From positions 6,293,375 through 6,357,374 of the forward strand of contig CAIIXF020000005.1 of the NCBI GenBank assembly GCA_903813345.2: DNA of 64,000 bases, read 5' to 3'. The notes under the pieces are model-generated. The model was not told the DNA's origin and searched no databases. It was given only the letters and a program-made list of their open reading frames with translations. This stretch comes from Owenia fusiformis. Taxonomy: Eukaryota; Annelida; Polychaeta; Sabellida; Oweniidae. Below, in pieces: positions 28,401-34,400 of this stretch; position 1 is the first letter of the stretch; every line of letters begins with the position of its first letter. The position numbers and the translations under genes were made by a program.

Positions 28401-31400
28401 AACATCAGTTATGTCAAACATTTATTTAAATACAACACAGTGTTCTCCACAAGATTTTTTCTGAAGTGGGTGCAAAATGCTCATTTTTCATGATATTCTC
28501 ATTTTCAAGTAGGTACAAATGGATTTTCAGGTGGGTGCAAGCCTGTTTTTTAAAATCTCAATTGGGTGCTGCGCCCACTTGCTTCAATGCTGGGGAGATC
28601 ACTGCAACAAAATAATTCTAATTGGAGAATCAATTGAGTATGTTTCTCATCTCACCTTTATGTGGACCCAGTCAACTGCTGCTCTGACGTCCTGGAATAT
28701 TGACTTGTATGACATGAAGATATCACCTCCCTTCACTCCCTTGTCTATGCTGGAGGTACAAAGAAATACATGTTGAGTTAATGGTATAAAAGTGTTGAGT
28801 CAATGGTACACATAAATACACATAACATGAATAATGCATGGACCAATATCACATAAATATTGTACTCTAAAATATAAGGTGAATATGGATGTCAACAGTG
28901 ATCATTATACAATACACATCATAACAATTGGAATTTAATGATACATGTCTCAACTCGTAATGAAATTTGAAAATGACTAGATTTATAAAGCAATCAGAAT
29001 ACATGTCTGCCATGCATTAACTTTAAATATTTGCATGGCTCGAATTCTACACAAGAGAAACAGCAAAAAATATTGCAGTTTGAAGAGATGACTACAATAC
29101 ACCACATTTTCATGGTACTATAAAAATACTATGCATATAATAAACGTATACAGCACAATTTCTAAACAAACAGAAGAAAATGAGATCCCAATGTCATACA
29201 ACGCAATCCAAATACCTCCACTAGAAATATGACTTAGATATTCTACTTACGTTGTGTATTCTTCACTATTGGTAAAGTAATCAATCAGGCAGGCCAGTAA
29301 GTAAGTCTCTGTAATGAAAATACAAACACATCACATTGCATTGCGTGATACACAAGTCTTATACAATGTAATGGCACAATCTGGTTGAAATTACAAGTGC
29401 AACCATTTGTTACAGATGAAAATGGTGAACGTCAAATGCAGAAACAAAACATCAGCCATAAAAATGGTGACTATAAGAAAAGCTTGACATTTCTAATTTG
29501 TTACATTAAAAATCATATAAACTGCTGGGATGTCTACATGCATCAATTGTTGCTTTTTTATTTTGAAACTTCTATTCAATATGAACAGAGAATATGTGAA
29601 TACTGAAATTTAAGGGTTTAAGGCATGAGACCCATGTGTTACCTGGTAGGTTGAACAATGTGTTGAGCACATAGATTCTACTGTCATCTAGTTGAAGGAA
29701 CTTGTTGGGATAGAGTTCTCTCACCTCATTCCTGAAACATAGAAGATGTAATTAGGAAGTGACTATGTATGGGCCATTACAAAATAGGTAGGTTAAAGAA
29801 TGTGTTGAGCACATAGATTCTACTGTCATCTAGTTGAAGGAACTTGTTGGGATAGAGTTCTCTCACCTCATTCCTGAAACATAGAAGATGTAATAAGGAA
29901 GTGACTATGTATGGGCCATTACAAAATAGGTAGGTTAAAGAATGTGTTGAGCACATAGATTCTACTGTCATCTAGTTGAAGGAACTTGTTGGGATAGAGT
30001 TCTCTCACCTCATTCCTGAAACATAGAAGATGTAATAAGGAAGTGACTATGTATGGGCCATTACAAAATAGGTAGGTTAAAGAATGTGTTGAGCACATAG
30101 ATTCTACTGTCATCTAGTTGAAGGAACTTGTTGGGATAGAGTTCTCTCACCTCATTCCTGAAACATAGAAGATGTAATTAGGAAGTGACTATGTATGGGC
30201 CATTACAAAATAGGTAGGTTAAAGAATGTGTTGAGCACATAGATTCTACTGTCATCTAGTTGAAGGAACTTGTTGGGATAGAGTTCTCTCACCTCATTCC
30301 TGAAACATAGAAGATGTAATAAGGAAGTGACTATGTATGGGCCATTACAAAATAGGTAGGTTAAAGAATGTGTTGAGCACATAGATTCTACTGTCATCTA
30401 GTTGAAGGAACTTGTTGGGATAGAGTTCTCTCACCTCATTCCTGAAACATAGAAGATGTAATAAGGAAGTGACTATGTATGGGCCATTACAAAATAGGTA
30501 GGTTAAAGAATGTGTTGAGCACATAGATTCTACTGTCATCTAGTTGAAGGAACTTGTTGGGATAGAGTTCTCTCACCTCATTCCTGAAACATAGAAGATG
30601 TAATAAGGAAGTGACTATGTATGGGCCATTACAAAATAGGTAGGTTAAAGAATGTGTTGAGCACATAGATTCTACTGTCATCTAGTTGAAGGAACTTGTT
30701 GGGATAGAGTTCTCTCACCTCATTCCTGAAACATAGAAGATGTAATTAGGAAGTGACTATGTATGGGCCATTACAAAATAGGTAGGTTAAAGAATGTGTT
30801 GAGCACATAGATTCTACTGTCATCTAGTTGAAGGAACTTGTTGGGATAGAGTTCTCTCACCTCATTCCTGAAACATAGAAGATGTAATAAGGAAGTGACT
30901 ATGTATGGGCCATTACAAAATAGGTAGGTTAAAGAATGTGTTGAGCACATAGATTCTACTGTCATCTAGCTGAAGGAACTTGTTGGGATAGAGTTCTCTC
31001 ACCTCATTCCTGAAACATAGAAGATGTAATTAGGAAGTGACTATGTATGGGCCATTACAAAATAGGTAGGTTAAAGAATGTGTTGAGCACATAGATTCTA
31101 CTGTCATCTAGTTGAAGGAACTTGTTGGGATAGAGTTCTCTCACCTCATTCCTGAAACATAGAAGATGTAATAAGGAAGTGACTATGTATGGGCCATTAC
31201 AAAATAGGTAGGTTAAAGAATGTGTTGAGCACATAGATTCTACTGTCATCTAGTTGAAGGAACTTGTTGGGATAGAGTTCTCTCACCTCATTCCTGAAAC
31301 ATAGAAGATGTAATAAGGAAGTGACTATGTATGGGCCATTACAAAATAGGTAGGTTAAAGAATGTGTTGAGCACATAGATTCTACTGTCATCTAGTTGAA

Positions 31401-34400
31401 GGAACTTGTTGGGATAGAGTTCTCTCACCTCATTCCTGAAACATAGAAGATGTAATAAGGAAGTGACTATGTATGGGCCATTACAAAATAGGTAGGTTAA
31501 AGAATGTGTTGAGCACATAGATTCTACTGTCATCTAGTTGAAGGAACTTGTTGGGATAGAGTTCTCTCACCTCATTCCTGAAACATAGAAGATGTAATAA
31601 GGAAGTGACTATGTATGGGCCATTACAAAATAGGTAGGTTAAAGAATGTGTTGAGCACATAGATTCTACTGTCATCTAGTTGAAGGAACTTGTTGGGATA
31701 GAGTTCTCTCACCTCATTCCTGAAACATAGAAGATGTAATAAGGAAGTGACCATGTATAGGCCTAAACATAATAGAGACACACAGTCATACATGGAGTGC
31801 ACATAGCCACCCTAAAAACAGATCAAGTAGGATTTTGAACCAATGAAGTGTTACATACTAACATACAGCCTTGTGGCCTAAGGAACACTTCGACAAACAG
31901 CAAAGCCTCCGTACATTTAGAGATGGCGTCTAAATAGTAGAAGTTGTGGAAAAACAAAGTTTTTTTTAAAATGCTAATTCATTTAATTTGATCAAAAGCA
32001 TTTTACATAACTAACAACCATTCACACAAAGCATTTCAATTTCACTTTTTAACGTATCATTATTTACACACAATTTGTAGTGTACATATTATATGTATGA
32101 AGTGTATTTTGACAATAATTTCTCTGTGGCAATAGTCTATATTCAGTAATAAGGTACTTACGGTTTGAGGTAATGAAAGCCCCTACAGCAGACAAGGATG
32201 TTGCCAAAGGCATCAACTTTAAGTAGGTTACCATAGAGATTATCAAACCAGAGACCTCTGAAATACAGCACAACAAACATTCAATTAATATCTATTTAAG
32301 GCTCTATAAAATAAATTCCAGCAACTAATGGAAGAATAACCAGTGATTACAATGCTGAATATTCTGTGAGCACAGTGCTCCTCAAAGATCCAAAATATCT
32401 TCTTTCTTTCTCATGAAGTCTGAGGAATAAATTCTGTACACCAGCTATGGAGAATGAAAACTGGTTGGGTCGCTTATTTTTGATCGACCTTGTCTGATTG
32501 GGTAAGGTTGAGATCAAAGGACTGTCCATTAGTTAAAGATGAGAGTGTAGATTAAACTTTACTGGAGTCAAACTATTGCAAGGTTAATGAAATGCTTTTC
32601 CTATCAAATATAAGAGCTTCTTGAAGCTTCTTTATACAAAATAAATCAATGAATGCTTACCTAACTGGAAATGTTGGATCATATTCAAAATCTTTGATAA
32701 CATCTGGGTAACCAATTGATATCAGTCTGTCTACAATAAGGCTGAACCCCAGTGCTTCATAATCTGGTGACTTGTACACTGAAACATACATGTTAAATTG
32801 GTGACTTGTACACTGGAACATACATGTTAAATTGGTGACTTGTACACTGGAACATACATGTTAAATTGGTGACTTGTACACTGGAACATACATGGTTAAA
32901 TTGGCTATGTGACTTAAACGCTGAAACATACATGTTAAATTGAGTTATTGAGCAGGCACTTTCTTGAACACACCTATAGTTTAATAACATGAATTTGACT
33001 CCTTCATTACATCACAGGATCCTCTCCATTTCTTTTTTCTTTTAATAGAGATTCAAAGATGAAATTTGAGTTAATATACTATTAATATAGTATTAGGAGT
33101 TCATTTCTTCCATCAGTTTGAAATGGGGATGGAATTTAAGTGTTCCAATTCTGAAGTGTTCATTTGAAGAGGTATTCACAAACAAATGTTTTACTCTAAA
33201 CACCTACCTGCTAAGGTGTAGTCCATATCAAAGCCAAAGAACTTGATTTTGTCCAAATGAAGACTCCTATTGACAAACACTCTGGAATAACAAAAGAAGT
33301 TAAAATAATTTTTCATCTTTTTCAAATTCAAAATAATTTCTGGGAAAAATAACATAAATAGTTGTCCATGTAATGATAATTTAAATAAAGGAACAATAAA
33401 AACGAATGTAATAGTTTCAATTGAAATACTAAGATGATTATATTAAAATGAAAATGAAAGTTTAAGCATAAAATAAATCAAAAACAATGTACAGAGACAG
33501 AATTATCTACTCTTTTAAAATTCTACAAAAATATGTGCTTTAATGTGTGCTTATTGCAATCTTATATCTGTCTAACTTCCAATGATATTTGTGAGGTGAG
33601 ACAAAATGTGAGAGTTGTATATTAAATATACATAATTCCAGACGTTCAAACTTAAACAATGACATGCATAAAAACTGGTGTATTTCTTACACATCAGAAG
33701 CATCCAAAGTGCTTGTTGAAAAATTCAATAGCATGCATTGCAGATACTGCTGTTATCTGATGACACGTGTTATATAGGGTCTGTATCTTTAAAACAAAAA
33801 TATCATTATACAACAAACATTCACATGCAGTATTCACTATAGTAAACATAAAGGAACAAAATAAAGGTGACTAGTCCATCCATAATTCAAAAAATATCTG
33901 CCAGCAAAAAAGGTTGATATTAAAAAGAGGTGAATAAAAAAGCCTGATGCTCAAGAGTCAATGTTACTACAAAAAGGCTGATACCTAGAGCAAGGCATCA
34001 ATAGTTCAAATGAAATATGTATTTCAGTATTGAGATAATAGATCTCTAAACTGAAGGTTCAAAATCTTAGGAACAAGAAACATTAAGTAGTTGTAGTATA
34101 CTAGTATTGCATAATTATCTTGAGCCCCCTCCCCATTATCTATTTCCCTACCAACAGGTATATATGGGTTGTATCTTTTTGGGGAGGGCAGCCACACAGG
34201 GGCCTGATCCAAACATCAGAGAAACCATGCAATATAAATTGGTAAGTGATAACCTATTACAACAAATGTAGACATACAATCATAATATAAATACATATAA
34301 TATAAATAATAGGTGTGAATCTGAATTAGACTGACTCCAACTGATTATGTAACAAATCAATAACATAAGAGATATATCATCTCTTGAATAATCCCCTTAA

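What the first reader, a model, noticed from the sequence alone, without database searches (positions are those of the whole stretch)
29643..31775. Array of 14 phase-compatible exon copies inside NT5C2
Seen: exon 5 (29731-29643) is unit 1 of a 15-unit, 142 bp array. Units 2-15 keep the acceptor, and each has GTAATG after CCTATTTT. Using that GT gives a 93 nt exon (29873-29781 and every 142 bp up to 31719-31627). Each copy starts by completing a codon left at CC or TT and ends with TT, so it is phase-matched at both ends and has no stop. Any one could therefore be added in frame, inserting 31 residues ([10 protein letters not shown] ... FFNLPIL) into the nucleotidase. Against: the donor is weak, and the gap between copies is only 49 nt, too short for ordinary splicing between neighbours, though skipping over copies would avoid this. 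It may also be neutral satellite growth, or the copies may act as acceptor decoys that tune exon 5 use.
Basis: partly seen in the sequence, partly recalled or inferred. Interest (0 to 1): 0.75.

Follow-up and report, generated by a model that had tools for sequence, protein, structure and literature searches.

The report
Repeat array over NT5C2 splice site
A stretch holding a splice signal and most of one NT5C2 exon is repeated 14 extra times in a row in what is probably an annelid worm; other genes of the same genome carry similar arrays, and the copies look like tolerated repeat growth rather than spare exons that enter the protein.

Summary
The array is real: 15 units of 142 bp (29645-31763, minus strand). 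Unit 1 is true exon 5 of NT5C2; units 2-15 each hold the intron-4 acceptor and 87 of the 89 exon positions. All 15 matches in the searched 498 Mb assembly lie here. The cassette-exon reading is weak: the copies lack the exon's own donor, the substitute TTT|GTAATG scores below 124 of 124 donors assigned in this genome, and 31 of 79 simulated duplications of this geometry also gain a phase-matched, stop-free GT. What is there is one case of a class, splice-boundary minisatellites, called 'mirages' in amphioxus. The same gene holds three more and nine more were read in myosin, kinesin and a paralogue gene. Near copies are about as frequent at exon edges (6 of 101 acceptors, 2 of 87 donors) as inside introns (3.5% and 5.0%), which fits tolerated, not favoured, growth. 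Exonic variants shared by several copies are mostly synonymous, private ones are not: a hint of exchange with the live exon. No RNA was available; use of a copy at low level is not excluded.

The parts
29645..31763 (-). Tandem array, 15 units of 142 bp, over the exon 5 acceptor; unit 1 is the true exon
   Evidence: TRF; stacking
29643..29731 (-). True exon 5 (89 nt) with native donor CAG|GTAACA
29781..31719 (-). Units 2-15: 14 half-exon copies (87 nt of exon plus intron-derived TATTTT before GTAATG), native donor absent
32162..32257 (-). Exon 4, donor CC|GTAAGT
   Evidence: HMM hit; splice sites read
32661..32778 (-). Exon 3 (begins VYKSP in frame)
   Evidence: HMM hit; splice sites read
32765..32942 (-). 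Array over the exon 3 acceptor: 34 bp, 5.1 copies (ATTTAACATGTATGTTTCAG|TGTACAAGTCACCA)
   Evidence: TRF; read; 4 extra acceptor copies
24475..24697 (-). Later NT5C2 exon with arrays at both ends
   Evidence: HMM hit; splice sites read; PDB match
24666..24752 (-). Array over that exon's acceptor: 41 bp, 2.2 copies by TRF, degenerate further copies upstream
   Evidence: TRF
24257..24496 (-). Array over that exon's donor: 25 bp, 9.1 copies (CTCTCTAAAACATACAG|GTAATA)
   Evidence: TRF

Best explanation
It is a splice-boundary minisatellite of the kind called a 'mirage' in amphioxus. A tandem duplication with one break in intron 4 (near 31765-31775) and the other two bases before the end of exon 5 copied the acceptor together with a nearly whole exon that lacks its donor. 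Unequal exchange then most likely raised it to 15 units and kept the inner ones uniform. Splicing most likely joins exon 4 to unit 1, the only unit with both a good acceptor and a good donor (exon definition), and units 2-15 leave with intron 4. Shown: anatomy, uniformity, loss of the native donor, the same anatomy in other genes. Inferred: order of events, the splicing outcome, neutrality.
For: Units near-identical, ends diverged; native donor only in unit 1; substitute donor ranks below 124 of 124 assigned donors; in-phase GT expected in 31 of 79; three further boundary arrays in the same gene and nine in other genes, each unit as read with one native splice site and a truncated exon; edge density like that of introns; private variants not synonymous-biased, with frame lost in 1 of 4 copies in two arrays. 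Precedent: mirages in amphioxus Adh3 and globins do not disturb regular splicing (PMC3087553, passages; PMC3902484, one passage).
Against: No transcript data. Open frame and acceptor are intact in all 14 copies. Shared variants are synonymous-biased, which weak selection on the copies could also give. Only neighbour-to-neighbour joins are barred by size. Copy number rests on the assembly.
Confidence: 0.85

Rival explanations
1. The copies are optional in-frame exons: one (or several non-neighbouring ones) is spliced in through the GTAATG donor, adding 31 residues each to NT5C2.
For: Acceptor, open frame and phase kept in 14 of 14 copies; shared variants over nine arrays synonymous-biased.
Against: Donor below 124 of 124 assigned donors; phase match expected in 31 of 79; neighbours only 49 nt apart against a 126-nt minimum in 58 sampled introns; conserved Leu changed in all copies; read-through of a copy hits a stop at codon 33.
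Confidence: 0.04
2. The 14 extra acceptors act as decoys or a kinetic delay that tunes use of exon 5, so copy number would matter.
For: Each copy carries the same acceptor and branch region as the true exon, and a strong donor-like GAG|GTGAGA seven bases into the exon (scores above 86 of 124 donors).
Against: The true exon holds the same internal donor-like site; similar arrays occur in unrelated genes at about intron density, so no sign that exon edges are favoured; amphioxus mirages leave splicing undisturbed.
Confidence: 0.08
3. The copy number is an assembly artefact of a much shorter repeat.
For: Inner units are nearly identical; no reads were available.
Against: Marker bases differ between units in an ordered way (A in units 1, 4, 8, 10 and a private base in unit 10), and other arrays in the genome show ordered variants. 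The exact number may still be wrong.
Confidence: 0.03

Closest known systems
Amphioxus 'mirages' (Adh3, TnC, globins BflGb6 and BflGb9, PGBD5 repeats)
   Same: Minisatellite-like tandem copies of one intron-exon boundary; BflGb6 units of 150-160 bp hold the intron 3' end and the 5' part of an exon; cluster ends escape homogenisation (passages).
   Different: Here an annelid-like genome, up to 15 (NT5C2) and 18 (kinesin) units, and several arrays per gene in two genes; splicing and polymorphism not tested.
Human internal tandem repeats at exon-intron boundaries in segmental duplications (PMC2812944, passages)
   Same: Minisatellite growth touching exon edges, with cryptic splice sites as a route to new introns.
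   Different: There mostly about 30-bp units within exons that change the transcript; here the copies lie in the intron.
Earthworm metallothionein wMT-2 exon 4 duplications (PMC12783039, passages)
   Same: Annelid gene with duplicated exon sequence absent from the transcripts.
   Different: Two copies, one inverted, not a minisatellite array.
Mutually exclusive exon clusters (for example muscle myosin; recalled)
   Same: Tandem exon-like copies in one gene.
   Different: There each copy has its own acceptor and donor and has diverged; here the native donor is missing and copies are near-identical.

Membership tests
Mirage (splice-boundary minisatellite) | Tandem unit spanning an exon-intron boundary next to the authentic exon | tested here: met
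Mirage (splice-boundary minisatellite) | Concerted evolution of inner units, cluster ends excluded | tested here: met
   Inner units differ at 2 sites; 5 of 49 bases at the unit 15 edge and the 3' end of unit 1 differ
Mirage (splice-boundary minisatellite) | Regular splicing of the mRNA undisturbed | not testable with these tools
   No RNA data
Mirage (splice-boundary minisatellite) | Copy-number variation between haplotypes | not testable with these tools
   One assembly, one locus
Cassette or mutually exclusive exon cluster | Each copy has a usable acceptor and donor | tested here: not met
   Acceptor kept, native donor absent; substitute scores below 124 of 124 assigned donors. This is a score, not an assay.
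Cassette or mutually exclusive exon cluster | Copies held by selection on the protein | tested here: inconclusive
   NT5C2 copies have one silent private base only; over nine arrays shared 15 S:3 N, private 8 S:15 N
Cassette or mutually exclusive exon cluster | Copies found in transcripts | not testable with these tools
   No RNA data

The most novel reading that the evidence does not exclude
In this annelid-like genome tandem growth over exon edges is widespread (by, 7 of 190 sampled edges outside NT5C2 and the array-chosen locus L057 have extra splice-site copies, two of them resting on one weak copy), and the half-exon copies keep exchanging sequence with the live exon, so that old variants bear the exon's selective filter and new ones do not. 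Each array would be a standing store of ready-made splice sites and half exons from which new introns or exon extensions can arise, and a source of copy-number polymorphism inside ordinary genes.
Probability: 0.3. Interest if true: 0.6.

Novelty: new member of a known kind. Interest (0 to 1): 0.42.

Why it matters
In the papers seen here mirages are described from cephalochordates. The same anatomy in several genes of a genome with annelid markers would make it a wider mode of gene evolution, gives young arrays in which the choice of the spliceosome among identical sites can be tested, bears on models of intron gain by tandem duplication, and warns gene predictors not to count such copies as exons.

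Tried and rejected
Amphioxus as the source was considered because of the mirage papers and set aside: window GC is 31-36% (that amphioxus is higher is recalled), a GFP-family search found nothing (which by its own note does not show absence), and a muscle-myosin fragment scores higher against scallop (229 bits) than human (205 bits) (the entry names are recalled as scallop, the tool says only 'Myosin heavy chain'). COX1 search: nothing. Rfam and tRNA scans of the window: empty. That exon edges are hot spots for array growth was tested and not found. Kinase and ABC-transporter searches for more large arrays gave one tandem exon pair, a full and diverged duplication, not of this class. The L012 array (103 bp x 4) looked like a boundary array but does not touch the exon.

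Limits and corrections. The survey's 139 exon hits (76 myosin, 43 kinesin, 11 paralogue, 9 window) are rows (92, 144 and 19 rows) that fell in fetched DNA, plus exon 5; I left out 11 of the 12 repeated myosin exon rows of L012 and the later rows of the L057 kinesin array. L057 was fetched because its array had been seen, so counts that include it (7 of 103; 6 of 103 acceptors) are biased; one search leaves it out, and 5 of 101 acceptors and 2 of 89 donors remain by subtraction of its two exons. Splice sites were assigned as the best of several near each HMM edge by a recalled generic matrix, so weak real donors are under-represented; 20 donors dropped were put back. One search used slightly wrong geometry (83/53 instead of 87/55) and repeated identical draws; one search replaces it. 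One search had a wrong frame for L031; one search corrects it. In one search, which uses only copies as long as the reference, the 'fixed' class is inflated, most likely by shifted copies of L026-260, and is not used. The ten arrays read by eye (nine at exon edges) were picked because they looked like boundary arrays.

Full report
Source. The window lies in G000, an assembly of 498,259,871 bases in 525 contigs. C1 to C12 are 31.9 to 62.2 Mb long. The erythrocruorin linker family (annelid by recall) matches above its cut-off at three places within 15 kb of C6, and Owenia fusiformis is published at 505.8 Mb with 12 chromosome-scale scaffolds (PMC9977687, passages). I take the source to be an annelid, perhaps Owenia or a close relative; this is inference.

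The array. On the minus strand exon 4 ends at 32162, intron 4 runs to 29732, exon 5 is 29731-29643. TRF finds 14.9 copies of 142 bp at 29645-31763; 15 units stack without a gap. Units 2-15 hold TTTCAG, exon 5 up to AACCTACC (87 of 89 positions, two of them changed), then TATTTTGTAATGG. The native donor CAG|GTAACA is in unit 1 only.

Is the exon reading more than chance? Entry phase and open frame come from exon 5. The exit phase needs a GT in phase before a stop: 31 of 79 sampled exons duplicated with the same geometry have one at or after the break, as do 47% of 4136 draws of random geometry from 83 exons. TTT|GTAATG scores -0.19 on a matrix from 124 donors assigned in this genome, the lowest of which scores 0.96; 39% of 30,573 GTs in the sampled DNA score as well. 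Of 77 candidate introns 58 were phase-consistent, the shortest 126 nt, the median 345; neighbour-to-neighbour joins would need 49 nt, but a copy spliced past its neighbour would leave 191 nt or more. Read-through from the first acceptor meets a stop at codon 33. All 14 copies change a Leu shared by worm exon 5 and human NT5C2. The copies and the true exon alike carry a strong donor-like GAG|GTGAGA seven bases in.

A class, not a singleton. Three other TRF arrays in the same gene cover splice sites. I took myosin, kinesin and NT5-paralogue regions around HMM exon hits; apart from L057 they were chosen before arrays were looked at. With the window they make 45 segments of 284,978 bases. Read by eye, nine arrays outside the window cover an exon edge: donor side in L016 (125 bp, 9 copies), L018 (34 bp, 4), L019 (41 bp, 4) and L026 (83 bp, 7); acceptor side in L024 (61 bp, 4), L026 (91 bp, 12; 260 bp, 4), L031 (61 bp, 3) and L057, a kinesin exon (159 bp, 18). 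As read, each unit holds one native splice site and a truncated exon. In a uniform test, without L057, 5 of 101 acceptors and 2 of 89 donors outside the window gene have extra 40-mer copies at 75% or more, with AG or GT kept in every copy; two of the seven rest on one copy at 31 of 40 and no chance control was run for that test. The control is the profile: a near 32-mer copy within 1.5 kb is found at 6 of 101 acceptors and 2 of 87 donors, against 56 of 1602 positions 100-420 nt into introns on the acceptor side and 72 of 1436 on the donor side. At this sample size exon edges are neither clearly hot nor cold. Tandem growth is common and growth over an edge seems tolerated, presumably because a half exon is not recognised; that step is inference from exon definition.

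Variants in the copies. In the exon parts of nine arrays (NT5C2 and eight others; L018 not included) variants shared by several copies are 15 synonymous to 3 not; counted once per copy pattern 12 to 3, P about 1e-5 against 75% nonsynonymous expected with transitions weighted twice. Private variants are 8 to 15 including one stop (P 0.19), and differences fixed between copies and live exon 3 to 2. The stop lies in a copy with an indel, so its alignment is doubtful. With only copies of reference length, shared are 13 to 2 and private 2 to 9; without the kinesin array 7 to 1 and 2 to 8. Frame is lost in 1 of 4 copies in two arrays. So single copies seem free to decay, while older variants passed through a constrained sequence; exchange with, or reseeding from, the live exon explains this. 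Weak selection on the copies could give a like pattern, since older variants are always more filtered. A lead, not a proof.

Comparison. The anatomy is that of amphioxus mirages: BflGb6 has units of 150-160 bp with the intron 3' end and the 5' part of the exon, 6 and 3 units in two haplotypes, cluster ends outside homogenisation, and regular splicing by RT-PCR (PMC3087553, passages). Adh and TnC mirages are said to give no aberrant mRNA (PMC3902484, one passage). The original Adh paper was not read. Searches of open-licence papers listed no report of mirages outside cephalochordates; I judged from listings and, for five papers, passages. Related cases: human tandem repeats at exon-intron boundaries (PMC2812944, passages), a potato intron gained by tandem duplication (PMC4974935, listing with start of abstract), and earthworm exon-4 duplications absent from transcripts (PMC12783039, passages).

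Verdict. Observation confirmed. It is a splice-boundary minisatellite, a known kind, in a lineage where I found no earlier report, and one of several in this genome.

Noticed in passing
L012 (G000:C9:37986001-37994800): Twelve Myosin_head rows match nearly the same profile stretch (about 18-84) in tandem beside a muscle myosin gene: a likely large cluster of alternative exons.
   Followed up: no
L057 (G000:C2:23266359-23269174): A kinesin motor exon acceptor is repeated in 18 copies of about 159 bp, larger than the NT5C2 array.
   Followed up: partly
L026 (G000:C4:24495000-24504900): One myosin gene carries three boundary arrays (83 bp donor side, 91 bp and 260 bp acceptor side).
   Followed up: partly
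L058 (G000:C10:2256896-2257205): A kinase gene has two whole, diverged copies of one exon, each with acceptor and donor, only about 47 nt apart: a candidate mutually exclusive pair.
   Followed up: no
46360-46962 (+): Phosphomevalonate kinase reads as one uninterrupted frame of 200 aa (Pfam 9.1e-47) among intron-rich genes.
   Followed up: no
L015 3415-3563 and L017 390-595: The same 19-bp repeat unit (about ATAGGTGAGGCAAATGTAA) forms arrays in two unlinked myosin regions.
   Followed up: no
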